A stretch of 39,858 bases of DNA from Fibrobacterota bacterium. GTDB taxonomy: Bacteria; Fibrobacterota; Chitinivibrionia; Chitinivibrionales; FEN-1185. The notes beneath the pieces were generated by a model. It worked only from the letters and a program-made list of their open reading frames with translations, did not search any database and had not been told where the DNA came from. Location of the stretch: NCBI GenBank assembly GCA_003165595.1, contig PLWQ01000024.1, forward strand, positions 1-39,858. Direction: 5' to 3'. Shown in pieces: positions 1 to 15,753 of this stretch. Each line of letters starts with the position of its first letter. The first letter of the stretch is position 1. A program made the position numbers and the translations under genes.

Positions 1-77
1 AATAAACTATGTCAAGCCATAGTACGAAATATTAACGTGGACAATGTACTAGGTAGGGATCGGGCGGCGTGCTCACA

Positions 78-665
78 TCAACAGTCCGCGAATAGTTCGC
101 GAGCCTTGCTAGCATCCTCTTTCGTTATGCCCAACTGAACGTCAATGACGCTAAACAATTCCTGCTGCGGTATCCTTTTTCTCTGGCCAGGATTATCCTT
201 GAAAAAAGACTCGTGCTTCTTCCATTCAGGATATTTGTGGGTATAATCGCGAAGCTCAAAAGGCCCCATGCTTCCAAACCTGGAAACCACGAAATCCAAG
301 GCTTGCTTGTCTGAATCCGAAAGCATTTCAAATTCGCATTTTCGATTCTTGCTTCTGTACGAATTCTCGAATTCGTCCAGATGATTTTTTGCATAAACAA
401 GAATGTCGCCAGACAATTTGTTCGGCCTGTTTTCGTCAATGGATAAGACGTCTTTGGCCGCAGAACCTACCGGCCCCATTCTCATCGCCCAATATTCATC
501 CCCCGTAACGGTGCGGCCATAGTGAACCAAATGCTGTTTGTCGGCGAGGTATAGGAGTTTGATAATCTGTATCTTGTTGAGCACTGGGTGCGACTTCAAC
601 AAATACAGAATCGCCTGGATGACGGTGAGCGCTGTCTTTTGCATACTTTGATCCCGATAGGACAT
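78..665 (-). CDS. Panacea (SocA/DUF4065) domain protein
   Basis: A 195-residue protein with the Panacea (SocA-like, DUF4065) fold signature: an N-terminal helix followed by KIQIIKLLYLADKQHLVHYG (about residues 33-52), TGDEYWAMRMGPVGS, and a C-terminal helical region. Panacea proteins act as antitoxins, or as adaptors, usually encoded next to a toxin; SocA in Caulobacter is a proteolytic adaptor. No partner is visible: the next position downstream on this strand is the window edge, and upstream is about 970 bases without a gene on the same strand. GC is lower than in neighbours (37-48 % in three 60-base lines, against about 60 % elsewhere), suggesting horizontal acquisition. An alternative start is Met8 at 644. 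The family call is firm; the role as a toxin-antitoxin component is inference from the family. Confidence 0.8.
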   Translation of the reverse strand: MSYRDQSMQKTALTVIQAILYLLKSHPVLNKIQIIKLLYLADKQHLVHYGRTVTGDEYWAMRMGPVGSAAKDVLSIDENRPNKLSGDILVYAKNHLDEFENSYRSKNRKCEFEMLSDSDKQALDFVVSRFGSMGPFELRDYTHKYPEWKKHESFFKDNPGQRKRIPQQELFSVIDVQLGITKEDASKARELFADC

Positions 666-1357
666 CGGTGGTAGTCCTTTTAAATATATCCTTTCGTCGA
701 CCTCTTTGCAACCCCAATTACTACTGCCTACTTACTCCCTCTTTGTTGTCTGTTTCCAAGTCATTGCAGAATACACATCAAAATACGGGCCAAGAACAAT
801 GGAAATTTAGTCCCGCTGCCTTTGTTACAGATTATCGGCCCACCGATTGGCGAGGTTCAACGAATTTATGGCCATTCGGCAAGCCTAGGCTCCTTTGGCT
901 GGCCGCTCCCCCCCCTCGAACCATTGCAGAAACAACAAACAGCACCCCACGTGCGCCGGATGCGCGAGCTGGCTTTCCGGTTCCTGCTTTTCATGCGTGC
1001 AACCGATCAAGCTGCCTTTCTTGTCGCCAGGTATCACCGTCACAACACGCCCTTAGGAACCTGCTTGTTGTCTGGTCATTTCCATGACACGCGGAAACGG
1101 CCCTAGAATCGCGCCGGGCTCCGGCACGGCCTAGTTCTCTGGTTAGTCAAATCTACCCATCGTAGTGCCACGCCGCGCGCGTGTGGACGCGGAATGTCCA
1201 TTCTTGAATGTCCGTTGCGGTCGATCCCACGCTTCAAGTTTCGTTTTTGGTAACGTTGCCGTTGCCATATATTGCCAGACCATACCCTTTAATACCCTGT
1301 TTTAAGGTTGTTGAACTGCGAAAATTGAAGGATTTAAGCGGTTTTGACAGATAAGAA
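666..1357. other. Gene-free stretch, probable end of integrated element
   Basis: About 700 bases between the Panacea gene and the tRNA fragment. Open frames of 94-139 codons exist on the plus strand but show no recognisable domain, have unremarkable composition and lack convincing ribosome sites, so I do not call them. No transposase or integrase remnant was recognised. Its position directly upstream of a truncated tRNA suggests it is the non-coding terminal part of an integrated element. Confidence 0.4.
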
Positions 1358-1406
1358 TAGGATTTTCATTCCTGCAACATGGGTTCGATTCCCATAGGGA
1401 CTACCA
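1358..1406 (+). pseudogene. tRNA-Glu(UUC) 3' half only; probable attachment-site remnant
   Basis: The sequence reproduces the 3' half of a tRNA. Anticodon stem TAGGA/TCCTG (1358-1362 with 1370-1374) closes a seven-base loop TTTTCAT whose anticodon is TTC (1365-1367). A four-base variable region follows, then T stem ATGGG/CCCAT around loop TTCGATT (1379-1395), acceptor 3' strand AGGGACT (1396-1402), discriminator A and CCA. The layout matches bacterial tRNA-Glu. An intact gene needs an NGTCCCT acceptor strand and a D arm about 30 bases upstream; neither is present in the preceding 150 bases. The simplest reading is the 3' segment left at the distal junction of an element integrated into tRNA-Glu. 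A second CCA follows at 1407-1409. Confidence 0.75.
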
Positions 1407-1417
1407 CCAAGTATACC

Positions 1418-1449
1418 AAAAGGCCTGCGCTCTGTGCAGGTCTTTTTTT
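1418..1449 (+). terminator. Intrinsic terminator behind the tRNA-Glu 3' half
   Basis: An 11-bp stem (1418-1428 with 1436-1446, one G-T pair) encloses a seven-base loop and runs into seven T residues. The A-run on the 5' side means it could also stop transcription on the minus strand, for example from the large gene ending at 1638. It sits where a terminator of an intact tRNA gene would be. Confidence 0.7.
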
Positions 1450-1575
1450 CGTTCCCGTTCGGCGACATTGACTATTCCCGCAAACGCCGCCTTCTCCGCT
1501 CCTCGTAGCCCACACCGCGAACGTTTGACAAACGGTTTCCCGAACGCCTCCGGCGCCCAAGAGATTCTCCAAAAG

Positions 1576-1609
1576 CCTTCGGCCGCCGGCAGAGGCCGGC
1601 GGCCGAAGG
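1576..1609 (-). terminator. GC-rich perfect 15-bp hairpin, candidate terminator
   Basis: Arms 1576-1590 and 1595-1609 are exact reverse complements of 15 bases around a 4-base loop (AGAG). It lies 29 bases beyond the stop codon of the large fibronectin-III gene. Read on the minus strand the hairpin is followed by CTTTTGG, a short T-run, so termination is plausible but not textbook. Confidence 0.5.
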
Positions 1610-1637
1610 TTCAACATAATGATGCTTCGCGAGCGTG

Positions 1638-4600
1638 CTACCTCTTGAGGATGGGCACCATATGCGACGTTTTGTATCCCGGCGCATCCATAGTGCAGAT
1701 GTACGAAGCGGCGCCCAGCGAAAAGTCCCTGCCATCGCCAAGACGGCAATCCACGCTGTGGTATCCCGCGGCTACCAAGCCGTCCACGGCCGTCGCTATG
1801 TGACGCCCGAGAACATCGTACACCTCAATGCGGACATGCGGCGTCTGCAGCGCCGGCGGTACGGCGAATTTCACGGTCAGCACCGCGGTTGCGGGATTGT
1901 ACCTGGCGTTTTCCAGCGCGTAGACCGTGGGAATCCGGGACTTGAGGCTGTTCAAAACGGCAGTGGCCTGCGTCTTGAAGAAATTGACGGATGACCACGC
2001 GCCCGTGCCGCCGATGTTCGTCGCGCTTACCCGCCAGTAATACGTGGCATTGCCGGACAACCCTGTCACCGTCTGCGACGTTCCCACTATTCCGGCCTGA
2101 TTGTACAGCAGCTTGGCAAAAGCGGAATCGGTTGCCACCTGGAGGGTATACGACGTGGCGGTCGCCACCGAATCCCAGGATAGAATGAGCGTAATCGCGC
2201 TGTGTCCCGAGTCGCCGGCGGTTGCGCCGAGCTTTGGCGCTAGCGGGGCCGCGATTATGGTGACGAACCGGTACTTCGACGACCACACGCTGGTGCCGCC
2301 CGCGTCCGTGGCGTTGACCCGCCAGAAGTAACTCGTGTTGTTGACGAGACCGGTGACTATCTGGGAGGTCTTGCTCAGAGTGAACATCTGGGGATTCATG
2401 AACGTCGAATCGGCCGAGACCTGCACCGAATAGGCGCTTGCCTGGGCCACGGCGTTCCACGACAGCGTGTCGGTGACCGCCATGTTGCTGGCATTGTTGA
2501 CAGGAGCGATCGGCACCGGCGCCGCGCTTATGGTGGTGAACCGGCTGGTGACGGACCAGGCGCCGGTGCCGTTGGTGCTGTTGGTGGCATTAACGCGCCA
2601 GAAATACACGGTGGCACTGGCCAGATTGGAAACCACCTGGGAGATTGCGGCAATGTTGCTCTGGTTGTAGATCATGTTTCCGGCAAAGGTTGAATCCCCC
2701 GAAACCTGCAACGAATACGACGTGCTTCCCGGGACGGAATCCCAGGCAAAGGTTACCGTTTGCGAAACACTGGTGACCGGCGCGATCGGCGTGGGCGCGG
2801 AATTGGTGGTGGAGAACCGGCTCACGGCCGACCAGGCGCTCATGCCGCCGTTTGCATTGACGCCGTTGACACGCCAGTAATAGGTGACGGCATTTGCCAG
2901 CCCGCTCACGGTTTGGGATGATGCGGTTATTCCGCTTTGACTGTACACCACCCCGGTCAGGAACGTGGAATCGACGGAGACCTGCAGGGTGAAGGATGTC
3001 ATGGTTGCCGCCGCGCTCCACGACAACTTGATGGAGACCGGCTGGTTGCTTGCGCCACTCACGGGAGACACGGCAACGGGCGCGGAAAAGACCGTGGTGA
3101 AGCTGCTTCTCGCCGACCAATCGCTGATGCCGCCGGACGCCGACGTCGCCTCCACGCGCCAGAAATACGTCCTGTTGTTCGCCATGCCGTTGACGGCCTG
3201 CGATGTCGACGTCAGTCCGCTCTGGTTGAACACAAAGGACGGCGCCGTGGAAAATGACGAATCGGAAGATACCTGCAGGTAATAACCGGCGGCGGCGGGA
3301 ACTGCGTTCCATGCCACCGCCAGCGCAACGGGCTGGTTGGCCGCGCCGCTCGCGGGAGAAACCAGGGTCGGCGCAGCCATTGTTGTCGTGAAGCGGCTCG
3401 CGGTCGACCAAGCGCTCGTGCCGGCGGCGTTGGTGGCGCTTACACGCCAGTAGTACTGCGTATTGTTAATCAACCCCGCAACGGATTGCGTCACGGCGGT
3501 TAGCCCGCTTTGCGCGTACACAAGTGAACTTGCGAACAGGGAATCGGTGGACATCTGGAGCGAATACGACGTTGCCGATGTCACGGTCGACCACCCGACT
3601 TTCACACTCACCGACTGGTTGATCGCGTTGTTTGCCGGCGTGCTTGGAACCGGTGCGCCGATAAGCGTGGTAAAATACCGTTTGGTCGACCAGGCGCTGG
3701 TGCCGCTCGCGTTTGTCGCATTCACGCACCAGTAATACTGCGTGTTGCTGTTCAGATACGAAACCGATTGTGAGGTAGCGGTGAGCCCGGTCTGGTTGAA
3801 AATCGTCGTCTTGAACGAAGAATCGGCGGCAACCATCACCCCGTACGACCTGGCCGTGGCGACGGAATCCCATTGCAAAAGCACCGTGAGAGCAAGCCCC
3901 GTCGCGCTGTTGCCGGGATTTTCCAGCACCGGCGCGGGAAGGATGGTGGAGAAATGACTTACCAGCGACCATGCGCTGATACCCGCCGAATTGGTCGCAT
4001 TGACGCGCCAGTAATACACCATGTTGTTTGTCAACCCGCTGATGGCCTGCGACGTTGCGGTGAGCCCGCTCTGATTGATGGTGAACGTGGTGCCGAACGT
4101 GGAATCGGTGGAGACCTGGAGCGAATACGAGCTTGCGCTCGACACCGCACTCCACGACACCGTGAGCGAAACGGGCTCGCTCGTCGCGTTGTTTGCCGGC
4201 GAAACCAGGTTCGGTATGCCGGATACCGAGACCGCCGTTGTGAAGTCGGCCTTTACGGACCAGGCGCTCGTGCCGCCGGCGTTGGTGGCATTGGCACGCC
4301 AGTAGTAAACTGTATTGGCGGCCAGCCCGGTCACGGTCTGCGATGTCGCGAGAAGCCCGCCCTGATAGTAGTTGGAGGTCACGAAGTTCGGGTCGGTTGA
4401 CACCTGCAACGAGTACGACGTCGCGCCGACAACGGAATTCCACGAGAAGGAAATGCCGGACGGCTGATTCGTTGCGCCATTGGCAGGAAATGTGAGGGTC
4501 GGTGTCGAGGGCGTCAACTGGATCGTCGCAAAGCGATACGTTGCCGACCAGTCGCTGGTGCCCCCTGCGTTGGTGGCGCTCACATGCCAGTAATAGTTTG

Positions 4601-7600
4601 TGTTATTTGACAATCCGGTGACGGTTTGCGCGGCGTAGACCAGTCCGCTTTGATAATAGATGGAAGGACTCGCGAAGGTCGAGTCGGAAGACACCTGCAG
4701 AGTGTACGACGTGGCGCCGGTCACGGCATTCCACGACATTACCACCGTTACGGCCTGGGAGCTGGCGCCGTTTGTGGGAGAAATGAGAACCGGCAACGCG
4801 GGAGAGGCTATGGCCGTTGTAAAATTGGATTTTGTCGCCCAGGTGCTGGTGCCGCCCGGGTTCGTGGCGTTAACGCGCCAGTAGTACGTCGTGCTGCTGG
4901 CAAGTCCGGTCACGGTCTGCGACGTCGCCGTGAGCCCGCACTGGTTGTAACTCGATGTGGCGAACGCGGGATCGGTAGAGACCTGCAGAGCGTACGACGT
5001 AGCCGACGCAACCGCGCTCCACGACAATACCAGCGTCGTCATCTGGCTCACCGCGCCGGTGGCAGGCGCGATGAGCGTGGGTGCGATGAGCGTGGTTGTA
5101 AAGGAGTTATACGACGACCACACGCTCGTGCCGCCGGTATTGGTTGCACACACGCGCCAGTAATAGGCGGTGTTGTTGGCCAGCCCGCTTACGGTTTGTG
5201 AAGTTGTGGTGAGGCCGTTCTGGTTAAAAGCGAGCGAGCTCGAAAAAGTCGAATCGGTTGATACCTGCAGCGTATAGGAGGCCCCGGTGGTCACCGCGCC
5301 CCAGGAGAGCGTCAGGGAAACCGGCTGATTGGTCGCGTTGTTGGTGGGGGACACAAGGGTCGGCCCCGCAAGAACGGTGGTCAGTTTGTATACCGACGAC
5401 CACACGCTGGTGCCGCCCGTGTTGGCGGCATTCACGCGCCAGTAGTACGCGGTGTTGTTGGCCAGCGTTCCCACAACCTGTGACGTGGTTTGCAGGCCGT
5501 TTTGATTGTAGAAAAGACCGGCGGACGTGAAATTTGAATCCGTTGCCACCTGAAGAGTGTAGTTGGTTGCCGTTGCGACGGCATTCCACTGGAACGTGAG
5601 CGACAGCGGTTGGGCGGTCGCGCCGGTTGCCGGCGACACCAGAGTCGGCGCAGCAATCACGGTTGTAAAGCAACTGACCGAAGACCACGCGCCGGTGCCC
5701 GCCGCATTGATCGCATTGACCCGCCAGAAGTACTTGGTGTTGTTCGACAGGCCGTTCACGACCTGGGATGTCGATGTGAGGCCGGTCTGGCTGAAGATCG
5801 TCGCCGTTGCAAACGTGGAATCGGTGGAGATCTGGAGAGAATACGACGTCACCGGAGACACCGCGGTCCATGCGAGCGTTAGGGAAACGGGCTGGTTGGC
5901 CGCCTGGTTGAGCGGCAGGACCAGCGTGGGGCTGGACGGAGTCGCGACGATGGTCGCAAAGGAGTTCTTTACCGACCATCCGCCCGTGCCCCCCGCGTTT
6001 GTCGAGTTGACGCGCCAATAGTACGTCGTGTTATTTGACAAGCCCGAAACCGCTTGCGACGCCGCGGTCAAACCGCCCTGGCTCAAAAAGAGATTGTTGA
6101 AGTTGGAATCGGTGGCCACTTGGAGCGCGTAGGACGTTGCGGCGGTCACCGCGCTCCACGAGAGCGTTAGTGTTGTCTGCTGGTTGATGCTTGCGGTTGC
6201 CGGCAGCAGCGATGTCGGCGTGCCCAGAATTGTTGAGAATCGATCGACCGCCGACCATGCTCCGGTCCCCGCCATGTTTGTTGCGTTGACCCGCCAATAA
6301 TAGGTGGTGCTGTTGGTGAGCCCGGTCACCGACTGCGAAGTTGCAGTCAGGTTGTTCTGGCTGTACACCACCGAATTTGCAAAAGTGGAATCGGTCGAGA
6401 CCTGCAGTGAATACGAACTTGCCGACGTTGCCGAATTCCACGAGAGGGAAAACGAGACCGGCTGTCCCACGGCAGCATTCGCGGGCAACCCCAGAATCGG
6501 CTGGGACGGAACGGCGACAATGGTCGTGAATCTGCACACCGCCGACCACGCGCTGGTTCCGCCCGCGTTGGTGGCGCTCACATGCCAGTAGTACAGCGTA
6601 TTGTTCGACAATCCCGTCACGGTCTGCGCGGTGGCGGCGAGGTTGGTCTGGCTAAAAATGACCGAGGTGGCGAACGTTGAGTCCGTGCCAACCTGCAATG
6701 CGTAGGAGGTTGCCGACGCAACAGCGTTCCACGAGAGGGAAAGCGACGTCGGCTGGTTGGTCGACTTGTCGGCGGGCAGCGCGGCTGTGGGCGCCAGAAG
6801 CGTCGTGGCAAACCTGTTGGGCGCACACCAGGCGCTCGTTCCGCCGACGTTGCTCGCATCGACCCGCCAGTAATAGGTAGTATTATTTGTCAGCCCCTTT
6901 ACCGTTTGCGAATTCGTGATGAGCCCGCCCGCGTTATAGGTGGTTGAGGCAAATGTCGAATCTGTGGAAATCTGGAACGCGTATACCGTTGCGCTGGCGA
7001 GGCTGTTCCAGGAAAACGTCAGCGAATCCGGTTGGTTCGTGGCAAAATTGGCCGGGACAAAAGAAGAAGGCGCAAGCGGCGGCATTACGCTTTTCCACAC
7101 GCCGCTGCCGGTACCCGCGAACAGGGTGGTCCCGATCACGGCCAACGGGAGGGTTGTGGTGATGGAAGTGAGGCCGGTATTGACGGCCGCCCAGCCGGAT
7201 CCCGGATTATGGAACACTCCGCCGGCCGTGCCGGCGAAAACATCGTACCCGTTGGCCGCGAGGGAAAGAATTGTGGTGTTGTTTGACAGTCCGGAGTTGA
7301 AGGCGTTCCACGTGGCGCCGTTGTCGACGGAATAGTAGACGCCGTTGCCGTTTGTTCCCGCGTAGAGGCTGGTGCCGTTGGCGACAACAGTATTGACCGC
7401 CGCACTGGTCCCCGGAATGCCGCTGTTTGCCGGGGTCCAGGTCGATCCGCTGTTGGTGGACTTGTAGATTCCGCCGGAAGTGGCAACAAAGATGCTTCCG
7501 CCGCCCACCGCAAAAGCGTTTACTGTCAAATTGCCCGGCAGCCCTGAGTTGGACGCCACCCAGCCGGATGTACCGGTTGAATAAAGATATACCCCGTTGC

Positions 7601-8045
7601 CGCTGGTTCCGGCAAAGAGTTGAGAGCCGCTTGCCAGAAATGCGTTGATCGTGGCATTTGCCGGGAGTCCGGTGCTCACGGCCGACCAGCCGCTGGCGTC
7701 GGAAGCGAGAACATAAACGCCGCTGCCGTAGGTCCCGGCAAGAATCCCGTAGTTCGACGAGACAAGCGCCGTAACGCTGGCGTTGGCGGGCATGCCGGTG
7801 GTGATCTGCGTCCACGTTGCGCCGTTGTCGGCCGTGTAATAGACATATCCGCCGTTAATGCCTGCCAGGAGCGTGGACCCGCTGGCGGCAAAGCTCAGTA
7901 CGTTGCCTGCCGCAGGGCAATTGGTCTGCGTCCATTGGCCGGCCGCGATGCCCGGTAGACAAAGGGCAACTATTGCCAGCAATCGGCTCGCATAACTCAT
8001 CACGTGCTTCCGCTGTTCTTGCCGAGACGACCTACGTTGCAGCAT
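1638..8045 (-). CDS. Giant secreted protein: beta-propeller-like N-terminus, 18 FN3 repeats, type IX-like sorting tail
   Basis: A 2135-residue secreted protein. A basic n-region and hydrophobic core ending near AAGQW (about residue 37) form a signal peptide. Residues about 38-335 hold roughly seven units of the TWTPANSGI / LYAGTNGNGVYYS type, as in BNR/sortilin-like beta-propellers. Residues about 338-2015 are 18 fibronectin-III repeats of about 93 residues, each with the pattern NQPVSLTLSW, YSLQVSTDSTF, GLTNNTTYYWRVNATN and GTSAWS. The last 90 residues (VRIEVYDVLGRHIATAVDGL and a beta-rich end at ILKR) resemble Por/type IX C-terminal sorting domains. It is probably surface-attached or released; adhesion or carbohydrate contact is inference only, and no catalytic domain is seen. 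I kept the 8045 start for its well-spaced AGAGG; Met16 at 8000 is an alternative with a more typical signal peptide. Confidence 0.9.
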   Translation of the reverse strand: MLQRRSSRQEQRKHVMSYASRLLAIVALCLPGIAAGQWTQTNCPAAGNVLSFAASGSTLLAGINGGYVYYTADNGATWTQITTGMPANASVTALVSSNYGILAGTYGSGVYVLASDASGWSAVSTGLPANATINAFLASGSQLFAGTSGNGVYLYSTGTSGWVASNSGLPGNLTVNAFAVGGGSIFVATSGGIYKSTNSGSTWTPANSGIPGTSAAVNTVVANGTSLYAGTNGNGVYYSVDNGATWNAFNSGLSNNTTILSLAANGYDVFAGTAGGVFHNPGSGWAAVNTGLTSITTTLPLAVIGTTLFAGTGSGVWKSVMPPLAPSSFVPANFATNQPDSLTFSWNSLASATVYAFQISTDSTFASTTYNAGGLITNSQTVKGLTNNTTYYWRVDASNVGGTSAWCAPNRFATTLLAPTAALPADKSTNQPTSLSLSWNAVASATSYALQVGTDSTFATSVIFSQTNLAATAQTVTGLSNNTLYYWHVSATNAGGTSAWSAVCRFTTIVAVPSQPILGLPANAAVGQPVSFSLSWNSATSASSYSLQVSTDSTFANSVVYSQNNLTATSQSVTGLTNSTTYYWRVNATNMAGTGAWSAVDRFSTILGTPTSLLPATASINQQTTLTLSWSAVTAATSYALQVATDSNFNNLFLSQGGLTAASQAVSGLSNNTTYYWRVNSTNAGGTGGWSVKNSFATIVATPSSPTLVLPLNQAANQPVSLTLAWTAVSPVTSYSLQISTDSTFATATIFSQTGLTSTSQVVNGLSNNTKYFWRVNAINAAGTGAWSSVSCFTTVIAAPTLVSPATGATAQPLSLTFQWNAVATATNYTLQVATDSNFTSAGLFYNQNGLQTTSQVVGTLANNTAYYWRVNAANTGGTSVWSSVYKLTTVLAGPTLVSPTNNATNQPVSLTLSWGAVTTGASYTLQVSTDSTFSSSLAFNQNGLTTTSQTVSGLANNTAYYWRVCATNTGGTSVWSSYNSFTTTLIAPTLIAPATGAVSQMTTLVLSWSAVASATSYALQVSTDPAFATSSYNQCGLTATSQTVTGLASSTTYYWRVNATNPGGTSTWATKSNFTTAIASPALPVLISPTNGASSQAVTVVMSWNAVTGATSYTLQVSSDSTFASPSIYYQSGLVYAAQTVTGLSNNTNYYWHVSATNAGGTSDWSATYRFATIQLTPSTPTLTFPANGATNQPSGISFSWNSVVGATSYSLQVSTDPNFVTSNYYQGGLLATSQTVTGLAANTVYYWRANATNAGGTSAWSVKADFTTAVSVSGIPNLVSPANNATSEPVSLTVSWSAVSSASSYSLQVSTDSTFGTTFTINQSGLTATSQAISGLTNNMVYYWRVNATNSAGISAWSLVSHFSTILPAPVLENPGNSATGLALTVLLQWDSVATARSYGVMVAADSSFKTTIFNQTGLTATSQSVSYLNSNTQYYWCVNATNASGTSAWSTKRYFTTLIGAPVPSTPANNAINQSVSVKVGWSTVTSATSYSLQMSTDSLFASSLVYAQSGLTAVTQSVAGLINNTQYYWRVSATNAAGTSAWSTASRFTTTMAAPTLVSPASGAANQPVALAVAWNAVPAAAGYYLQVSSDSSFSTAPSFVFNQSGLTSTSQAVNGMANNRTYFWRVEATSASGGISDWSARSSFTTVFSAPVAVSPVSGASNQPVSIKLSWSAAATMTSFTLQVSVDSTFLTGVVYSQSGITASSQTVSGLANAVTYYWRVNGVNANGGMSAWSAVSRFSTTNSAPTPIAPVTSVSQTVTFAWDSVPGSTSYSLQVSGDSTFAGNMIYNQSNIAAISQVVSNLASATVYFWRVNATNSTNGTGAWSVTSRFTTISAAPVPIAPVNNASNMAVTDTLSWNAVAQASAYSVQVSADSTFMNPQMFTLSKTSQIVTGLVNNTSYFWRVNATDAGGTSVWSSKYRFVTIIAAPLAPKLGATAGDSGHSAITLILSWDSVATATSYTLQVATDSAFAKLLYNQAGIVGTSQTVTGLSGNATYYWRVSATNIGGTGAWSSVNFFKTQATAVLNSLKSRIPTVYALENARYNPATAVLTVKFAVPPALQTPHVRIEVYDVLGRHIATAVDGLVAAGYHSVDCRLGDGRDFSLGAASYICTMDAPGYKTSHMVPILKR
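1985..7034 (-). repeat. Coding tandem array of 18 fibronectin-III units (about 280 bp each)
   Basis: Within the giant gene, 18 consecutive units of about 93 codons repeat with similar but not identical DNA. Recurrent plus-strand blocks include GTTGACCCGCCAGTAATA-like and GAATCGGTGGAGACCTG-like stretches. Boundaries are estimated from the protein, not from DNA alignment. Such arrays change copy number by recombination and can be collapsed in assembly. Confidence 0.75.
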
Positions 8046-8569
8046 ACCTCACCTCTTTGATTGATTTTGTGTCACTGCGCCGGGCCGTACACCACGAATT
8101 GTGGAACGGGAAATGCCGGGCCCAACAATATATGAAACAGTGTCCTGCAAGCCACTTCGGACGCACTTGGCAAAAACGATTGCGAAAGCAGGGATTTTGA
8201 ATAACCGCAAGTGGTGCAATACCGGATCGAATCGTCTTGATATGGGGAAAACGGGTACCGTTGCGATACGCGGTTCGGCAGTTCGTAAATAGATGGTGCA
8301 AGGAAGACCACGGAAAATCCTTCTCAGAGCTTTTTGCCCGGGACATCCGTGTCCTTGTATCCGTCCTCGTGTCTTGAGTATCGGACGCGACACCGCGTTG
8401 CTTAAGTTTGCTTAGTGCCGGGAAACCGACAATTTGCCATTGTCAATGCATGAGTACGGAACGTGGAAACCGGCGGCCGGGGATTCTTAAGTAACAACGG
8501 CGAAGCGCATGTGGTCAAATATCTCGACAAAAGACGGGCAGGCCGTGTTCAAAGGAGAGGGCGTATCTT
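8046..8569. other. Intergenic region between divergent genes, no recognised gene
   Basis: About 520 bases upstream of both the giant FN3 gene (minus) and the DUF2934 gene (plus). Overlapping minus-strand open frames of 79-114 codons have no recognisable domain and no good ribosome site. Promoters for both neighbours must lie here, but I cannot point to convincing -35/-10 pairs. Confidence 0.4.
8052..8056 (-). promoter_or_regulatory. Ribosome binding site of the giant FN3 gene
   Basis: Minus-strand AGAGG followed by a 6-base spacer (TGAGGT) and the ATG at 8045. This favours the longer start over Met16 at 8000, whose upstream GGAAG is weaker. Confidence 0.5.
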
Positions 8570-9007
8570 GTGACAAGGGAAAAGAGGCGAAATGCCTCAG
8601 CGGCGTTGTGGGAATGTGACGCTGCAGGCGGGTTCGAAAGCGTTGAAGCGCATGCTGAGGTACTTGCCGCCGGGATGCTCTTGATGGACGAAATCAGAAG
8701 ACGGGCACACGAAATCTTCTGCGAGCGTGGTTGCATGCCCGGCAAAGAACTCAACGACTGGCTGAGAGCCGAGGTGGAGATCAGGGCCAGGTACAAGACG
8801 GGAATGAGAGCGCCGCACATTCCGGCGGGTTGGAGCACGCACGACAGATTTTCGGACAGGCTCTTAACCGACCTTCCCAGCCCTGCGGTACAGCACAAAA
8901 GCATGCACATACGGAAACGTGGCCAGCGCCTTCACCAGCGGCAGGAACAGCCGGGCACCCGATGTCGCGATTACGGCTTCGCCATCCGCATCGAACGTCG
9001 CCCCTGA
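8570..9007 (+). CDS. DUF2934 domain protein with unusual C-terminal extension
   Basis: A 145-codon frame starting at GTG. Residues about 38-66 carry the DUF2934 signature: MDEIRRRAHEIFCERGCMPG followed by KELNDWLRAEVEIRARY. DUF2934 is a short helical module of unknown function, often at the C-terminus of small soluble proteins. AAGGAG lies upstream of the GTG with a rather long spacer. The last 48 codons overlap the 3' end of the DUF2953 gene on the other strand, and the tail (basic, HQRQEQPG-like) does not look like a folded domain. Either the tail is a read-through extension after loss of an earlier stop, or a frameshift removed the native end near 8860. The domain call is good; the C-terminal boundary is uncertain. 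Confidence 0.6.
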   Translation: MTREKRRNASAALWECDAAGGFESVEAHAEVLAAGMLLMDEIRRRAHEIFCERGCMPGKELNDWLRAEVEIRARYKTGMRAPHIPAGWSTHDRFSDRLLTDLPSPAVQHKSMHIRKRGQRLHQRQEQPGTRCRDYGFAIRIERRP

Positions 9008-9706
9008 AAATTCCGGTTCGTAAACAACCTCCAGACGCCTGCTGCCGGGCAAGTTCAGCATGTGCGAAATTCCCTGATACCACCCGTAGAAAACGCCTGT
9101 CTGCGCAGGGTCGGAAAATCCGGCCTTTACGCGAACGCGAATTCGCGCAACCCTGCACATTCGCAGCAGCGAGCGCACGAGCCTTCGCAGCCAGCGCAGG
9201 ATCTTTCGCCGAAAAGACTCGTTTCCGAGAAATACCCACAGACGCTTGACGATCGTTAACCGCGACCGCGGCCCGGATTTCTTTCCCGGCGCAGGGGGCG
9301 ACGTTGCACCTGCCGCTTCTTTTTCGGCGGCCGGCGGCTCGCGCTTGTCTATGGGGGGCCGGTCTGCCGGGATCCGCGGGGCTTCGGGCTGTTTGGCAGC
9401 GGCAGCCGCGGTCTTCGTTGCTTCATTGGCCGCGGTGTACGGCGCGGCCGGCTGCTCTCCGGCCTCCGGTTGCATGCCGCCGGCATACAGCCGGTACTTG
9501 CCGAACGCGACGACCACGAACCGCCCGTTGCGCATGTCCAGGACGGCCTTGAGCGCTCGGGGGTGCAGCCAGGAGCAGCGAAGGATGCCCTTGTTCTCGC
9601 CCTCGCCCGTGGTTCCGGAACATGCGAGGGTGATGGGCGCGCACAGCACGACGGCGGCGAACGCGAGAAGGAAAAGAAGAATCGCGAGAAAAATTGACAG
9701 AAGCAT
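8864..9706 (-). CDS. DUF2953 family membrane-anchored protein
   Basis: A 280-residue protein with one N-terminal membrane segment (MLLSIFLAILLFLLAFAAVV), a long Ala/Pro/Glu-rich linker (about residues 85-145) and a C-terminal DUF2953-type domain. That domain holds an amphipathic basic stretch and the features FSDPAQTGVFYGWYQGI and LEVVYEPEFSGATFDADGE. DUF2953 proteins are conserved membrane proteins of unknown function. The ATG at 9706 has GGGAG five bases upstream and puts the hydrophobic segment at the very N-terminus, so I prefer it to the in-frame ATG at 9730. It is last in the tat operon, 51 bases after the fusion gene. Its 3' end overlaps the convergent DUF2934 frame. Confidence 0.75.
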   Translation of the reverse strand: MLLSIFLAILLFLLAFAAVVLCAPITLACSGTTGEGENKGILRCSWLHPRALKAVLDMRNGRFVVVAFGKYRLYAGGMQPEAGEQPAAPYTAANEATKTAAAAAKQPEAPRIPADRPPIDKREPPAAEKEAAGATSPPAPGKKSGPRSRLTIVKRLWVFLGNESFRRKILRWLRRLVRSLLRMCRVARIRVRVKAGFSDPAQTGVFYGWYQGISHMLNLPGSRRLEVVYEPEFSGATFDADGEAVIATSGARLFLPLVKALATFPYVHAFVLYRRAGKVG

Positions 9707-9757
9707 AGTGGCTCCCGCCGGAGGCTGCATCAGGAACGCAGGCGCTTGCGGATGATC

Positions 9758-10591
9758 CTACCCTGCCGGTTGCATGGGCGGAACCACCTGAGGCGCACTC
9801 TCCTGCGGCGGCGCGATCAGAACGCCTTTTTCTGTAATGACCTGATCCATCACGATGTCGTGGTAGGCAAACGGCAGCCTTTCGTCCGGCCCCAGGATCT
9901 GGCAGTCGAAGGCGATGCCGTACAGTGGAACTCGGCCCTTGAGCTCCTTGCAGAACCTGTCGTAGCATCCTCTACCCCTGCCAAGACGGCCGCCGAAGAT
10001 ATCGAAGGCGACGGCCGGGCAAATGATGAACTGAAGGTCGGACTTGAAAAAGTTGTTCCGCTTCGCCATAACCGGCTCATACACGCCCATCCCGTTGATC
10101 TGGATGTCTTTTTCCAGGTCGGTTATTTCACCCAGACCCATGGAAGAATCTTCGTTGGTATAAGGCAGAACCACACGTTTGCCCAAGGCAAGCATCTCCA
10201 CTATTGCGGGTCGCGTTGCGACTTCGGCGCCCGCTTCAACGTAGACCAACACCGATTTCGCCTTTGCAAAGTCTGGTTCCTTCTTCAGGTTCTCCCATAT
10301 CGCAGCGGATTTTGCCGCATGGTCCCGGGGGGAAAGCTCCTTGCGTTTGGCAATAAACCGCTGGCGCAGATCTTCCTTCTTCCGTATCACTTCCTGATCG
10401 TAGGAAGGCATGGGCTCGTTGAGGTTGCCAATTTCGTTGAGTTCCTTGCGCACCTTCTCGGTGTACATGCGGACTTTGCCCATAAAGCGAGCCGCCTGCC
10501 TCACGATGTTGGGGATCTCCTTTGACCCGAAAAAGATGAGGATGAGAACGAGGATGACGGCAATTTCCGAAAAATCAAGTCCCATGTTCAT
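9758..10591 (-). CDS. TatB-like subunit fused to 5-formyltetrahydrofolate cyclo-ligase
   Basis: A 277-residue two-domain protein in one uninterrupted frame. Residues 1-55 are TatA/B-like: a short periplasmic start (MNMGLDFSEI), one membrane helix (AVILVLILIFF), the hinge GSKEIPNIV and an amphipathic helix RQAARFMGKVRMYTEKV. Residues about 64-262 are 5-formyltetrahydrofolate cyclo-ligase (5-FCL, ATP-dependent conversion of 5-formyl-THF to 5,10-methenyl-THF). They show DLRQRFIAKRKELSP, the glycine-rich nucleotide/folate motif FGGRLGRGRGCYDRF (199-213) and the closing YHDIVMDQVITEKG. The ATG overlaps the tatC stop as ATGA, so translation is probably coupled. An internal ATG at 10411 could start a free 5-FCL but has no clear ribosome site. 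The enzyme would be tethered at the cytoplasmic face of the membrane. A sequencing indel joining two genes cannot be excluded. Confidence 0.8.
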   Translation of the reverse strand: MNMGLDFSEIAVILVLILIFFGSKEIPNIVRQAARFMGKVRMYTEKVRKELNEIGNLNEPMPSYDQEVIRKKEDLRQRFIAKRKELSPRDHAAKSAAIWENLKKEPDFAKAKSVLVYVEAGAEVATRPAIVEMLALGKRVVLPYTNEDSSMGLGEITDLEKDIQINGMGVYEPVMAKRNNFFKSDLQFIICPAVAFDIFGGRLGRGRGCYDRFCKELKGRVPLYGIAFDCQILGPDERLPFAYHDIVMDQVITEKGVLIAPPQESAPQVVPPMQPAG

Positions 10592-11355
10592 GCGGTGCGC
10601 CCCCGGGCGAGAAACGATACCAGAATGCTCACGCCGTAGATAAACAGCAACGGTATTGACATAAACAGCATGGAAGCCAGGTCGGGCGGACTGATGACGG
10701 CTGCGACGATCGCGATAATGACGATGGCGTGCCGCAGCTTGCTCACCAGAAATTTCGGGGACAAAATTCCCATTCGCGTGAGCACCCACGAGACCACGGG
10801 AAGTTCGAAAATAAGGCCGCAGGCCAGGCCCAGCTTTATCATGAAGGAAATATATTCGCTGGCCTTGAAATACGGTTCTATCACGCCGCCGCCGAACGTG
10901 GCGAGCACTTTGATCATGAAAGGAAGCATGAAATAGGCAAACGTGATTCCCGTGAAAAATGAGAAGGACGAAGAAATCACGATGGGCAGCACCATCTTCT
11001 TTTCTTTGCCGTACAGGCCGGGCGAAACAAACGCCCATATCTGGTAGAATATGAAGGGAATCGATACGATGAGGCCGCCTACCAAGGCTATCTTCATGCT
11101 GAGCATGATCGCTTCTGCGGGCGCGGTAAAAATGAGGTGCGGCTTTGGATTGGTATACCGCAGCGGAATCACCAGCAGGACATGAAATATCTTTTTCCAG
11201 AAGACGAAACAAGGTATGGAGCAGACGAAAACCGCCACGATGCTCTTGATAAGCCGGCCCCGGAGCTCTTCAAGGTGGTCAAGGAAATTCATGCCCTCGC
11301 GGGCATCGTCTCCCTTACCCTTCTTTCTTAGCTTCCGCAGCAGGTTTGGTATCAT
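10588..11355 (-). CDS. tatC: Sec-independent protein translocase TatC
   Basis: A 255-residue polytopic membrane protein, the core of the twin-arginine translocase that receives folded substrates with RR signal peptides. Family features include NFLDHLEELRGRLIKS at the cytoplasmic N-terminus, TAPAEAIMLSMKIALVGG, IPFIFYQIWAFVSPGLY, the membrane Glu in GLIFELPVVSW and RHAIVIIAIVAAVISPPD, spread over six hydrophobic segments. It overlaps the 3' end of tatA by 41 bases and the next gene by four (ATGA), so the genes are co-translated. A shorter start at Met22 (11292) would remove the tatA overlap; I kept the longer frame because its N-terminal lysine-rich stretch looks coding. Confidence 0.95.
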   Translation of the reverse strand: MIPNLLRKLRKKGKGDDAREGMNFLDHLEELRGRLIKSIVAVFVCSIPCFVFWKKIFHVLLVIPLRYTNPKPHLIFTAPAEAIMLSMKIALVGGLIVSIPFIFYQIWAFVSPGLYGKEKKMVLPIVISSSFSFFTGITFAYFMLPFMIKVLATFGGGVIEPYFKASEYISFMIKLGLACGLIFELPVVSWVLTRMGILSPKFLVSKLRHAIVIIAIVAAVISPPDLASMLFMSIPLLFIYGVSILVSFLARGRTA

Positions 11356-11524
11356 TCGGCTTTTCCGCCTCGTTGAGTTCTTTGGTGGCTTGGCTTGACG
11401 CTTTCTTGAATTCTCTTATTCCCTCTCCCAGGCCTTTTGCAAGCTCGGGTATCTTCTTTGCTCCGAAGAGCAGCACTATCACAAGAATTACTATTGCCCA
11501 GTGAAGCGGGCTCATGGTACCCAT
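11315..11524 (-). CDS. tatA: Twin-arginine translocase subunit TatA
   Basis: A 69-residue protein with the standard TatA layout. A short N-terminus and one membrane helix (LHWAIVILVIVLLFG) are followed by the hinge with FG, an amphipathic helix (KKIPELAKGLGEGIREFKKA) and a charged low-complexity tail. TatA forms the oligomeric pore element with TatC. It is the first gene of the minus-strand operon tatA-tatC-tatB::5-FCL-DUF2953 and is divergent from rlmB across about 108 bases. AGGGG stands eight bases before the ATG at 11524; Met4 is an alternative start. The TatB function is presumably supplied by the fusion protein two genes on. Confidence 0.95.
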   Translation of the reverse strand: MGTMSPLHWAIVILVIVLLFGAKKIPELAKGLGEGIREFKKASSQATKELNEAEKPNDTKPAAEAKKEG

Positions 11525-11632
11525 AATGTACCCCTTTCATTTGATTTGACACGCCAGCGCCGGCGCCAACGCGCAGGCCAGAACCATTTAGATACGCACA
11601 AAACCAGTCATAAAATATATTAAGAGCCAACC

Positions 11633-12469
11633 ATGGATACCAATTTACCTTCCTCTCACCGCTCGGCACCCCCTCCTCTGAATGCCGGCACCATAGTCTA
11701 TGGCATACATCCGGTTGAAGAACTCATCGCAACCAGACTACGTCAGATTGACCGCCTTTATTTTGATGGCGAGCGTTCGAGCGGCCCGTTGTTCGAACTG
11801 GTAAAACTGGCCAGAAAAGAACGCCTGCCGTACCAGATGGTGCCAACGCAAAAGCTGGACTTTACCGCAGGAAGCCGGAACCATCAGGGAGCCGTGGCAC
11901 TGTGCAGCGCCAAGGAATACCTGAGTCCGGAGACGCTGCTCGAACAGCTGTTGAAGAAACCGTCTGCCCCGCTGCTGTTTCTTCCCGCATCGGTGGAAGA
12001 TCCGCGCAACCTGGGCGCGCTCGTGCGCACCTGCGTGGCGTTCGGCGTTGACGCGATGCTGCTGGAGCGGAAAAATACCGCGCCCGTAGGCGCAACGGTT
12101 GCCAAGGCCTCGGCAGGCATGCTGGAAAGAATTTCACTTGTAAAGCCAAAGAACCTTGAGGGGCTTGTCGAAACGCTAGCCGCAAAGGGATTTGCAGTGG
12201 TGGGAGCCATACAGGGTGCGGAAAAGAAACCTCCGGATGTCGATTTCACGGTGCCGGCGATACTTATTACAGGCGGCGAAAACCGCGGAATCCCTCCGTA
12301 CCTTGCCAAGAAGTGCACGCACTTCGCGGGAATTCCTATTGCCGCCGAGACCGAATCGCTTAATGTTTCCGCCGCCGCCGCCATCCTCCTGTACGAATGC
12401 GCACGGCAGCGCGGGTTCCCTTTTGCAAATGAGCACGCCGGGTCAAGATCGGTTGTTGACAAAAAATAG
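11633..12469 (+). CDS. rlmB: TrmH/SpoU-family 23S rRNA (guanosine-2'-O)-methyltransferase, RlmB-like
   Basis: A 278-residue SPOUT-class RNA 2'-O-ribose methyltransferase. The N-terminal substrate-binding domain (IVYGIHPVEELIA, about 21-33; NHQGAVAL at 83-90) precedes the knotted catalytic domain. The three SpoU motifs are DPRNLGALVRT (123-133, catalytic Asn/Arg), ITGGENRGIPP (212-222) and IPIAAETESLNVSAAAAILL (234-253). RlmB methylates a guanosine in the 23S peptidyl-transferase loop region; a tRNA target cannot be excluded for this family. The gene stands alone on the plus strand, divergent from tatA. A perfect 9-bp inverted repeat follows from the stop codon. Confidence 0.9.
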   Translation: MDTNLPSSHRSAPPPLNAGTIVYGIHPVEELIATRLRQIDRLYFDGERSSGPLFELVKLARKERLPYQMVPTQKLDFTAGSRNHQGAVALCSAKEYLSPETLLEQLLKKPSAPLLFLPASVEDPRNLGALVRTCVAFGVDAMLLERKNTAPVGATVAKASAGMLERISLVKPKNLEGLVETLAAKGFAVVGAIQGAEKKPPDVDFTVPAILITGGENRGIPPYLAKKCTHFAGIPIAAETESLNVSAAAAILLYECARQRGFPFANEHAGSRSVVDKK

Positions 12470-12512
12470 CCGTTCACGCTGACCCCTTCGACGTGTCGAC
12501 GCATGAACGGCT
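12468..12512 (+). repeat. Inverted repeat at the rlmB stop codon
   Basis: AGCCGTTCA (12468-12476, including the last two bases of the rlmB stop) is exactly complementary to TGAACGGCT (12504-12512), enclosing 27 bases. There is no T-run, so it is at best a weak or processed 3' end structure for the rlmB transcript. Confidence 0.4.
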
Positions 12513-12536
12513 GGCTGGCCTTCCTGTTCCTCTTAT

Positions 12537-12572
12537 ATCCTGGTCATCCTGATTATCCTGCCCATCCTGATC
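12537..12572. repeat. Four copies of a 9-base tandem repeat ATCCTGNNN
   Basis: Four consecutive 9-base units (ATCCTGGTC, ATCCTGATT, ATCCTGCCC, ATCCTGATC) fill the gap immediately before the stop codon of the minus-strand gene at 12573. Only the last three bases vary. The array stays between two convergent genes and does not enter either coding sequence. Confidence 0.7.
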
Positions 12573-13703
12573 CTATTTTCCGCCCAGACCGAAGAACGAA
12601 TCCATCGTATTCTCTATGTCTTCCCCGCTGATGATGGGTTCTTCCCCGTCCGGATCTTGCGTCGCGGGTTGAGCACTCTTGGCAGCCTGCTGATGTTTCT
12701 GCGCAATTTCGGCGCCCTCCACGACAATGGCTTCGGGAGGAGTTGTAGCCGCACCCATAAGCTGGTTCCTGTCCCACTGGAGGGTCTTCTCGATTCGCTC
12801 CGCGTGAAGAGCCTGCGTATCCACCGGCGCCACGATTTCTTCCGCGGCAATCTTCTTTGGCGCAGTGTCCATCGCCTTTTCGAGGTCGAACGCTTCTTCC
12901 GCATCCAGTCCAGGGGGCCGCATTTCCTCGGGCTGTGCCGTTCTGGGCGCGGCAGAGGGTTTCTTCTCTTTTGCCTGAGGCTTGGAGGCGGGTGCGGCGT
13001 GCCAAACCTCTTCCGCAGGCTGCTTGCGCTTCGGCCTTTCCTCGCGTACGTCGTCGGCTACGGTAATGATGCCGGTGCGAAGGTCCAGTGCCGGCGGCTC
13101 GGCAATCGGGGGCGCCGGAAACGCGGCCGCGGGAGGAGGAACCGACACGGTCTTCCGCTCCGTAAATGACGGGGCGGCCACAATGGTTTCTTCGCTGCTT
13201 TCCGTGGGGGCCGCGGGCATTGCCTCGGACTGGGCAGCAGGCCCGAGCGATTCGATGCGCGCCTTGATCTCCTGAACAATGGCGGCCGACGTGTCGGTTT
13301 GCTTCGGTTTTGCGTCGCTCAGGTACTTGTCCACGGCAAGTGCGCCCTGGCCCGCGTCGCCGCCTGCAAAGGCGGCGCGGTACGCCGCGATCCGCGATTC
13401 CATGTACTTCACAAAGTAGATATCGAGCTGGTGCATGTTTTCGGTGAGGATCTTCTGCATCTTGTCTATCCTGGGAGACAGCGCGGAGCGGAGCGCATGC
13501 GCGTTCATCGCCTTCGACACCGCCGACGAAGTCACCTTGTCGGCTTCCGCCGATTCCTCGGCAATTGCCTTCATCACCAGACTCTTTTCGCGCGCGAGCT
13601 GGCGCTGGGCTTTTCCCACCACGACAAGAACCAGCCACACGGCCGAGCTTGCCAGGGCGCCGATGATGAAGCCGATGCAGATAAGAAGTGCCGTGTCGTT
13701 CAT
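12573..13703 (-). CDS. Membrane-anchored, Ala/Pro/Glu-rich protein of unknown function
   Basis: I do not recognise this 376-residue protein. It has one N-terminal membrane segment (TALLICIGFIIGALASSAVWLVLVVVG, about residues 4-30) with no signal peptidase site, so the rest is probably cytoplasmic. A predicted helical, possibly coiled-coil region (about 31-110) is followed by some 220 residues rich in Ala, Pro, Glu and Lys that look disordered. The last 16 residues (EDIENTMDSFFGLGGK) form a distinct acidic/aromatic end that could be a short docking peptide. AAGGA lies seven bases before the ATG. It lies downstream of the glycogen-synthase-like gene on the same strand, 178 bases apart, so it may have its own promoter. 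Confidence 0.7.
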   Translation of the reverse strand: MNDTALLICIGFIIGALASSAVWLVLVVVGKAQRQLAREKSLVMKAIAEESAEADKVTSSAVSKAMNAHALRSALSPRIDKMQKILTENMHQLDIYFVKYMESRIAAYRAAFAGGDAGQGALAVDKYLSDAKPKQTDTSAAIVQEIKARIESLGPAAQSEAMPAAPTESSEETIVAAPSFTERKTVSVPPPAAAFPAPPIAEPPALDLRTGIITVADDVREERPKRKQPAEEVWHAAPASKPQAKEKKPSAAPRTAQPEEMRPPGLDAEEAFDLEKAMDTAPKKIAAEEIVAPVDTQALHAERIEKTLQWDRNQLMGAATTPPEAIVVEGAEIAQKHQQAAKSAQPATQDPDGEEPIISGEDIENTMDSFFGLGGK

Positions 13704-13881
13704 ACGGAGTTCCTTTCCCCCAAGCGCTTGTGAGAGCGTTCCTTGTTACAATTACCTTACAATGATACACCGCGCAGACGGAAAAATCAACCTATTATTG
13801 GACTGCGGTTGCAAGGAACCTATGGCGATCATGCGCCTGTCAACCTGCAAGCGCCCGGAGATGCAGCCAGCGTTCCGTCCC

Positions 13882-15681
13882 CTACACAACGCTCCGCGAT
13901 GCGCTGTCGTAGACCTGCCGGTATTTTGCCACCGCGCCCGACCACTGAAACGAATCGAGCGACCGGACACCGTTTGCGACAAGCCCTGCATAGGCGCGCT
14001 CCTCGGCATACAGCCGGACAGCGGTTTCCAGGGCGCCGTAGGCGGCCTCAACCATGGCTTCGAACAAGGGCGACCTGCTCCGCTCGGCGAGCGGAAACGA
14101 GAAGATGCGCTGCCATTCCTTTTCGGAAAGCGCGTCGGGATACTTTTCCCTGTAGAGAATCCCCGTGGCGGACGCGCCGTCGAAAGCCGCTACCCGCTGC
14201 AGCAGTGAACCGTAGAACGGCGGCACGTACACCGCCGACGTGGGCGCCACTTGAATCCACAGGCCGCCGGTGGCGCGCGCAACAACGGGCGTGCCTGCGC
14301 CAAAACCTTCCGTAGCGGCCCCGAAAGGTTCATACAGCGACGGCATCGCAAGAAAGCTCGCGCCCCTCAGAAGCACTTTGTATTCCTGGTGCGGCACGAA
14401 GAACGGCCATATGGTGATATCGCCGTTACAGCGCAGTGCAATGTCTTTGAAGAAATCCAGGTCGGCATTCTGTGCGCCTGAAGCATCGGTGAGCCCGCCC
14501 ACATTGGGAGAAAAGAACAGCTTTGCGCTTCCGCGCTTGAGCCTCTGGAAAGCGGAAAAAATCACATCGAATCCCTTTTGCAGGAAATCGAGCCGGCCGC
14601 TCAGGAAGAACACCGGGACCCGCTCGCCCCTGCCGGGCGGCGCAAGCGTGCCGATCACCCTGCCGTCGCCGCAGGCCGTCACGCGCGACCAGAACGAGTC
14701 GTACCGCCGCTGCTTCTCGGAAAGCAGTGGCGCGGCGTCGCCCGATTCGCATTTGGCAATTACCGTGCGGGAAAACGCGGCGTCCCGATCGCCGAATGCG
14801 CCGTTTTCGATGCCGATGGGAGGGTTTCGGGAAAACACATCCTGCAGATGCGCGGCGAAACAACCCTGCTGCAGCGGGTCGGCGCGCAATTCGTGCGCAA
14901 AAGGAGTGCTCACCGTGGTAAGCGGTCCGTTGAGGAGCGGAATGAAAGCCGACAGGACGGTGGCGGCGGGGATCAGCCGGGAAAAATACCGGCTGGTCAC
15001 CTGCTTCGGGAGCTGCGCGTCGTACGAGTTGTGCAGGGTGAGAACGGTCTTGGCCGATTCCAGCACGTGGTTGACAATTGACATTTTTGACGACAGTGCG
15101 ATCGCCGCGGTTTCCCAATCGTTGGCGTGGAACAGGACGTTTCTGGTGATCCCGAGCCTGGCGAGCGCAAACGGGACGGCGATGCAGAACACCAGGCTGT
15201 CCTCAAGAAGGTTGGTCGGGTCCGAATAACTGTACGGGTTCTCCTCGGCGACAAACTGCTTTTCGACGGACAGGAAATAGCTTGGAATTTCCGCGGTAGT
15301 GTCCCGGAAGCAGGTGAGCCGGCGAAAATCGTTGCCGCACTCGAACGGCACGCTGAGTTCTTCGGAAAACTTCCCTTTGTGCCGCGCGGCCTTTATTGCC
15401 GCATGGTTCGTGTGATAGGGTGTCACGAACACCACCTTCTCGTTTGCCTGCCGCAGAAACGCCGGCAGGAAGCGCGTCACCACCGAAAGCCCGCCGAGCG
15501 ACGCGTATTCGTTTTCGAACGCGAGTAGTACAATGGTGCGGGACCCGGCGTCGAACGACCGCTCGCTCTGGCTCAAAAGGTCGATTTCCCGCGGTGTGAA
15601 GAAATCCTCGTAGCCGGAGCGGAACTGCGTCCAACTGTACAGCTTTGTGCGGAAAATGTGGTCGAACTGCTGTGGGATCAT
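13882..15681 (-). CDS. GT5-family glycogen/starch synthase-like glycosyltransferase
   Basis: A 599-residue GT-B glycosyltransferase of the glycogen/starch synthase type, which transfers glucose from ADP- or UDP-glucose to alpha-1,4-glucan ends. N-terminal Rossmann half: LAFENEYASLGGLSVVTRFLP (donor-site GGL loop), FHANDWETAAI and LTLHNSYDAQ. C-terminal half: VFFLSGRLDFLQKGFDV and the nucleotide-sugar site SLYEPFGAATEGFGAGTPVV followed by ARATGG. It is longer than bacterial GlgA (about 480), owing to an N-terminal segment and extra insertions, so its exact acceptor is unsure. The frame opens at a TTG at 15732; I chose the ATG at 15681, 72 bases after the priA stop. It follows priA on the same strand and may be co-transcribed. 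Confidence 0.85.
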   Translation of the reverse strand: MIPQQFDHIFRTKLYSWTQFRSGYEDFFTPREIDLLSQSERSFDAGSRTIVLLAFENEYASLGGLSVVTRFLPAFLRQANEKVVFVTPYHTNHAAIKAARHKGKFSEELSVPFECGNDFRRLTCFRDTTAEIPSYFLSVEKQFVAEENPYSYSDPTNLLEDSLVFCIAVPFALARLGITRNVLFHANDWETAAIALSSKMSIVNHVLESAKTVLTLHNSYDAQLPKQVTSRYFSRLIPAATVLSAFIPLLNGPLTTVSTPFAHELRADPLQQGCFAAHLQDVFSRNPPIGIENGAFGDRDAAFSRTVIAKCESGDAAPLLSEKQRRYDSFWSRVTACGDGRVIGTLAPPGRGERVPVFFLSGRLDFLQKGFDVIFSAFQRLKRGSAKLFFSPNVGGLTDASGAQNADLDFFKDIALRCNGDITIWPFFVPHQEYKVLLRGASFLAMPSLYEPFGAATEGFGAGTPVVARATGGLWIQVAPTSAVYVPPFYGSLLQRVAAFDGASATGILYREKYPDALSEKEWQRIFSFPLAERSRSPLFEAMVEAAYGALETAVRLYAEERAYAGLVANGVRSLDSFQWSGAVAKYRQVYDSASRSVV

Positions 15682-15753
15682 CGTACGGTAAGCTTCCGGC
15701 CGATAGTTGTGACACGTGAAGGAATGCAACAAAATACATCACCCGCGCCGCGA

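What the first reader, a model, noticed from the sequence alone, without database searches (positions are those of the whole stretch)
1..1410. Distal boundary of an element integrated into tRNA-Glu
Seen: only the 3' half of tRNA-Glu(UUC) is present at 1358-1406, complete with CCA and terminator, while everything upstream is unrelated, low in GC and carries a Panacea gene. Known: tyrosine integrases commonly use tRNA 3' ends, leaving a 3' copy at the far end of the element. Inference: the window begins inside a genomic island whose other end carries the intact tRNA-Glu and probably the integrase, to the left of position 1.
Basis: partly seen in the sequence, partly recalled or inferred. Interest (0 to 1): 0.6.

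Follow-up and report, generated by a model that had tools for sequence, protein, structure and literature searches.

The report
Right end of tRNA-Glu-integrated island

Summary
Confirmed. The window is the left end of contig C22 of a Chitinivibrionales (Fibrobacterota) draft genome. Window 1359-1406 is the 3' 48 bases of tRNA-Glu(UUC), with no 5' half. The only other copy in the genome lies in an intact tRNA-Glu at C42:11682-11756(-). Next to it, on the side where the island should lie, are a tyrosine integrase, an excisionase-like protein, a small-terminase homologue, a primase/polymerase and a serine recombinase, at 48% GC against 58% for the host. Both ends carry the same presumptive integrase arm site, 49 bp from the core on one side and 81 bp on the other. 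A relative with a 50% identical integrase in the same order is complete on one contig: tRNA-Phe, a 54-bp repeat, 7.6 kb, and arm sites at 46 and 76 bp. C22 and C42 both break inside copies of one insertion sequence. The other two ends of that sequence in the assembly split a single gene, so C42 and C22 pair by elimination. The island is about 13.0 kb plus the insertion sequence. A same-genus genome has the intact tRNA-Glu without the island. This is a new member of a known kind.

The parts
1..52 (.). One end of an insertion sequence (terminal repeat 5'-CTAGTACATTGTCCA... reading inward), at the contig break
   Evidence: Matches C34:1-52 at 98%. The terminal-repeat pattern occurs exactly four times without mismatch in the genome, always at contig ends: C22, C34, C42 and C23.
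53..76 (-). First 8 codons (GTG start, directly after the Panacea stop codon) of a gene that the insertion sequence interrupts; presumptive Panacea partner
   Evidence: Sequence of window 53-80. An open frame in the same phase starts at the insertion-sequence edge on C42 and runs to C42:478. Pieces searched apart, no homologue found.
78..665 (-). Panacea-domain gene (195 aa), island cargo, presumptive antitoxin
   Evidence: PF13274 SocA_Panacea E=1.2e-21 and phrog_1281
1259..1277 (+). Presumptive integrase arm-type site, right end (CCGTTGCCATATATTGCCA)
   Evidence: 18/19 identical, same orientation, to C42:11632-11614 at the other end; best of 300 shuffles 16. The relative in G039 has equivalent sites at both ends at similar spacing.
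1359..1406 (+). attR core: displaced 3' fragment of tRNA-Glu(UUC)
   Evidence: 48/48 identical to C42:11729-11682, inside the intact tRNA-Glu
1363..1369 (+). Anticodon loop TTTTCAT, likely crossover region (inferred)
   Evidence: The shared block begins in the anticodon stem. The relative in G039 has the same sub-location in tRNA-Phe.
1407..1637 (+). Original chromosomal sequence downstream of tRNA-Glu, including its terminator-like hairpin at 1418-1446
   Evidence: Terminator scan and fold; GC rises to host level

Best explanation
Window 1-1406 is the right end of an integrative island in the only tRNA-Glu(UUC) gene found in this genome. Shown: the 48-bp direct repeat, the intact tRNA with the integrase beside it, the composition shift, matching presumptive arm sites at both ends, an unoccupied site in a same-genus genome, and a complete homologous island in tRNA-Phe of a related family. 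Inferred mechanism: a circular form carried an attP holding the 3' 48 bases of tRNA-Glu. The island's tyrosine integrase bound the arm sites and recombined attP with the tRNA gene, most likely in the 7-base anticodon loop flanked by the anticodon stem. The island thereby supplied a new 3' half, so the tRNA stayed intact on the left, and pushed the original 3' half with its terminator to the right (window 1359-1449). The excisionase-like protein probably steers excision. Later an insertion sequence landed in the gene after the Panacea gene, which is why the assembly breaks at window position 1. The order is tRNA-Glu, integrase and the rest of C42:11681-24, insertion sequence, window 53-1358, attR.
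For: 48-bp repeat and intact tRNA-Glu. Gene content of C42:1-11681: tyrosine integrase, 143 bits to phrog_1 and PF00589 E=3e-18, with R208, H301, R304, H327 and Y336 present; excisionase/MerR-like winged helix, 57% identical to the G039 copy; Terminase_2 small terminase, Prim-Pol, replication-type HTH and serine recombinase. GC 0.479/0.483 inside against 0.575-0.585 outside. Arm sites at 49 and 81 bp from the core here and 46 and 76 bp in G039, whose element is complete on one contig with a 54-bp tRNA-Phe repeat. Contig pairing: only four exact insertion-sequence ends exist, and homologues show C23 and C34 to be two halves of one gene, leaving C42 with C22. Unoccupied site in G001.
Against: The C42-C22 join is by elimination; the insertion sequence itself is not in the assembly, so no contig spans the island. 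The G001 comparison supports only the downstream side, because its upstream flank differs. The repeat does not by itself say where within the 48 bp the strands crossed. Excision and transfer were not observed.
Confidence: 0.94

Rival explanations
1. A narrower reading of the same island: it is a phage satellite of the phage-inducible chromosomal island type, which excises and replicates itself and uses its own small terminase to be packaged by a helper phage.
For: Size about 13 kb; order integrase, excisionase/AlpA-like, small terminase, Prim-Pol, replication HTH; no capsid, portal or tail gene found among the ORFs scanned; the phage-collection matches to the integrase are mostly streptococcal records, some labelled satellite phages (weak, 22-24% identity).
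Against: The homologous G039 element shows no small terminase; no helper phage is known; the phrog_2 search of this genome found nothing; induction, interference and packaging cannot be tested; cargo includes a second (serine) recombinase.
Confidence: 0.3
2. The tRNA fragment is a chance or rearranged partial duplication of tRNA-Glu (recombination or misassembly), not an attachment site.
For: C22 and C42 are separate contigs of a draft genome.
Against: The fragment is a 3' one, continues into its own terminator, and is bounded by a composition shift. An integrase and matching arm sites sit where an island requires them, and an independent homologous element has the same layout.
Confidence: 0.03
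3. The tRNA-Glu at this place is a split gene, for example interrupted by an intron.
For: The break falls near the anticodon, where tRNA introns lie.
Against: No Rfam match in the window, group I introns included; the 5' half is not upstream; the only intact copy is elsewhere and adjoins an integrase.
Confidence: 0.01

Closest known systems
Genomic islands in tRNA genes as mapped by Islander (PMC4383910), anticodon-loop class
   Same: Intact tRNA at one end, displaced 3' fragment at the other, tyrosine integrase inside next to the intact tRNA, crossover in the anticodon region (Islander counts 2083 islands with anticodon-centred sites, and 3760 of 3919 with a 3' fragment)
   Different: Split over two contigs by an insertion sequence; host group Chitinivibrionales; target tRNA-Glu
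Element in tRNA-Phe of Chitinivibrionales bacterium RBin_290 (WJMI01000336.1 = G039:C277 = L094/L105)
   Same: Integrase 50%, excisionase-like protein 57%, Prim-Pol 34% and serine recombinase 58% identical; same gene order; same sub-location and similar arm-site spacing
   Different: 7.6 kb rather than about 13 kb; tRNA-Phe rather than tRNA-Glu; a PDDEXK nuclease gene and no small terminase seen
Phage-inducible chromosomal islands of Gram-negative bacteria (PMC6092414)
   Same: Small island with integrase, AlpA/MerR-like regulator, primase-type replication gene and, as in some of them, a small terminase
   Different: No known helper, no induction or packaging evidence; no close sequence relation found

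Membership tests
tRNA-targeted integrative island (Islander definition) | Intact tRNA gene plus displaced fragment of it, same orientation, correct configuration | tested here: met
   configuration depends on the C42-C22 order, supported
tRNA-targeted integrative island (Islander definition) | Tyrosine integrase gene inside the island | tested here: met
   C42:10424-11599, PF00589 E=3e-18, phrog_1 E=3.8e-41, catalytic residues present
tRNA-targeted integrative island (Islander definition) | Length 2-200 kb | tested here: met
   12,964 bp plus one unassembled insertion sequence
tRNA-targeted integrative island (Islander definition) | Unoccupied site in a relative (supporting, not required by Islander) | tested here: met
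   G001:C29:55291-55365 intact tRNA-Glu, downstream genes orthologous to window 8870-17937, no integrase; upstream flank not conserved
Phage-inducible chromosomal island / phage satellite | Integrase, AlpA/MerR-like regulator, replication gene, no structural genes | tested here: met
   the regulator is assigned by weak profile hits and a moderate-confidence model (VIA-align Z up to 6.5)
Phage-inducible chromosomal island / phage satellite | Small terminase or helper packaging site | tested here: inconclusive
   Terminase_2 at C42:9101-9544, but none seen in the relative; such genes occur in only some of these islands (PMC6092414)
Phage-inducible chromosomal island / phage satellite | Induction by and packaging into a helper phage | not testable with these tools
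   Sequence only; phrog_2 search of the genome empty
PanAT toxin-antitoxin pair (PMC8832971) | Panacea protein next to a small partner gene, neutralising it | tested here: inconclusive
   Panacea domain met; adjacent gene is interrupted by the insertion sequence and has no homologue found

The most novel reading that the evidence does not exclude
The island and its tRNA-Phe relative are the first seen members of a phage-satellite lineage of Fibrobacterota, whose integrases switch tRNA targets while keeping the same arm-site layout.
Probability: 0.25. Interest if true: 0.45.

Novelty: new member of a known kind. Interest (0 to 1): 0.25.

Why it matters
It gives exact ends, integrase and presumptive arm sites for a small mobile element in a little-studied phylum, and shows that one integrase lineage uses different tRNA genes at the same sub-location. 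It also explains why the window starts where it does and lets two contigs be ordered. It does not change the known picture of tRNA-targeted islands.

Tried and rejected
Rfam scan of the window: nothing, so no intron or other RNA. ARAGORN on the window: no tRNA. Integrase scans of viral contigs and, as a single protein, of genome contigs: nothing; the two-sequence alignment found only the known relative and a distant proteobacterial match. Insertion-sequence ends elsewhere in the phylum: no exact copies, so its family was not identified; the CTAG/TA flanks suggest an IS630-like element from memory only. Defence library: nothing. Homologues of the Panacea partner piece: none, and no useful similarity to the gene after a Bacteroidales Panacea gene. 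The closest match in G001 to a thioredoxin-like gene upstream of tRNA-Glu lies on another contig, so the unoccupied site is supported on one side only. phrog_2 gave nothing in the own genome; I recall it as the large terminase, but the output does not say so, so it is weak evidence against a resident helper.

Full report
Observation. The window is bases 1-39858 of contig C22 of a 5.39-Mb, 42-contig genome. The host's order is named through a relative in the same order, G039, whose contig is WJMI01000336.1, a Chitinivibrionales bacterium; so the host is Chitinivibrionales (phylum Fibrobacterota, from my own knowledge). Window 1359-1406 equals the last 48 bases of an intact tRNA-Glu(UUC) at C42:11682-11756 on the minus strand. 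A 28-base probe from the T arm and acceptor, with three mismatches allowed, finds these two places only. ARAGORN finds no tRNA in the window. Of the 45 tRNA matches in the genome, 30 loci were scanned and 8 further stretches; the only tRNA-Glu seen was the C42 one, with a few long, Leu/Ser-like matches left unscanned. The tRNA fragment continues into a terminator-like hairpin. Left of it the GC content is 0.483, right of it 0.584.

The other end. On C42 the island lies on the 3' side of the tRNA, at 1-11681 (GC 0.479; the other side 0.575). Reading away from the tRNA it holds: a tyrosine integrase ending 82 bases from the tRNA (10424-11599); a small protein (10077-10346) modelled as a winged helix resembling the RdfS, GIsul2 and Pukovnik excisionases and BldC (the model is moderate, mean pLDDT 72, and Z at most 6.5); a Terminase_2 small terminase (9101-9544); a Prim-Pol protein (8191-8994); a replication-type HTH protein (7568-8011); a serine recombinase (5175-5894); a possible secreted protein with a weak T9SS-like tail (3024-4298); and an SRAP protein (1932-2597). 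The integrase has R208, H301, R304, H327 and Y336, all conserved in its relative.

Arm sites. The 300 bases next to the core on each side share one site in the same orientation, CCGTTGCCATATTTTGCCA (C42) and CCGTTGCCATATATTGCCA (window 1259-1277). They match at 18 of 19 positions; 300 shuffled pairs never exceeded 16. This links the two contig ends independently of the tRNA repeat. That these are integrase arm sites is inferred from position and from the relative.

A complete relative. Among 168 genomes of the phylum, one other (G039, another family of the order) has a close integrase, 50% identical. Its contig carries tRNA-Phe(GAA) at 3271-3346 and an exact 54-bp repeat of the tRNA's 3' part at 10887-10940. 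Between them lie the same integrase, excisionase-like protein (57%), Prim-Pol (34%) and serine recombinase (58%) in the same order. Its ends share AGTGCCCAAAAATGCCCAA, 46 and 76 bases from the core, against 49 and 81 here. In both elements the repeat begins in or just before the anticodon stem, so the crossover most likely falls in the anticodon loop, one of the known sub-sites (PMC4383910). That last step is inferred.

Joining the contigs. C22 and C42 both begin inside ends of one insertion sequence. Its terminal pattern occurs without mismatch four times in the genome, at the ends of C22, C34, C42 and C23. In several homologous loci the gene at the C23 end continues into the frame at the C34 start and then into the next C34 gene, so C23 and C34 flank one copy. 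The other copy must lie between C42 and C22. A small further sign is that the gene following the Panacea gene starts in the window at 76 and reaches the insertion sequence in the phase in which an open frame leaves it on C42. The two parts of that gene were not joined. The island without the insertion sequence is 11,658 + 1,306 = 12,964 bp.

Unoccupied site. Only two other genomes of the family are held. In the same-genus genome G001 an identical, intact tRNA-Glu is followed by orthologues of window 8870-17937, with a single copy of the 48-mer on that contig and no integrase nearby. Its upstream flank differs, so it supports the downstream side only.

Interpretation. The mechanism is the classical one (PMC4383910): the island brings a 3' half of the tRNA, integrase recombines it into the gene, the tRNA stays whole, and the old 3' half marks the far end. 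Whether the island is a phage satellite is open: the small terminase, size and regulator-primase layout fit (PMC6092414), but the relative shows no small terminase and no helper is known. Interest is low to moderate; it is a new member of a known kind.

Noticed in passing
C23:174904-176307 and C34:1-440 (L062, L038): A WecA-like sugar-phosphate transferase gene of an exopolysaccharide cluster is split by the second copy of the same insertion sequence.
   Followed up: yes
window 53-76 and C42:24-478: The gene directly after the Panacea gene is interrupted by the insertion sequence, so the presumptive toxin-antitoxin partner is probably broken while the antitoxin gene is intact.
   Followed up: partly
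window 1638-8045: A 2135-aa protein of many similar repeats (fibronectin-type look) lies right after the attachment site; no counterpart was found between tRNA-Glu and the orthologous genes in the same-genus genome G001.
   Followed up: no
window 20322-20503; C42:17361-17468; C42:23319-23512: A dispersed GC-rich repeat of about 110-190 bp, 76-80% identical between copies, meaning unknown.
   Followed up: no
C42:11682-11756, G001:C29:55291-55365, G002:C185:6200-6274: tRNA-Glu in all three family genomes pairs G1 with U72 at the top of the acceptor stem, so this is native and not brought by the island.
   Followed up: partly
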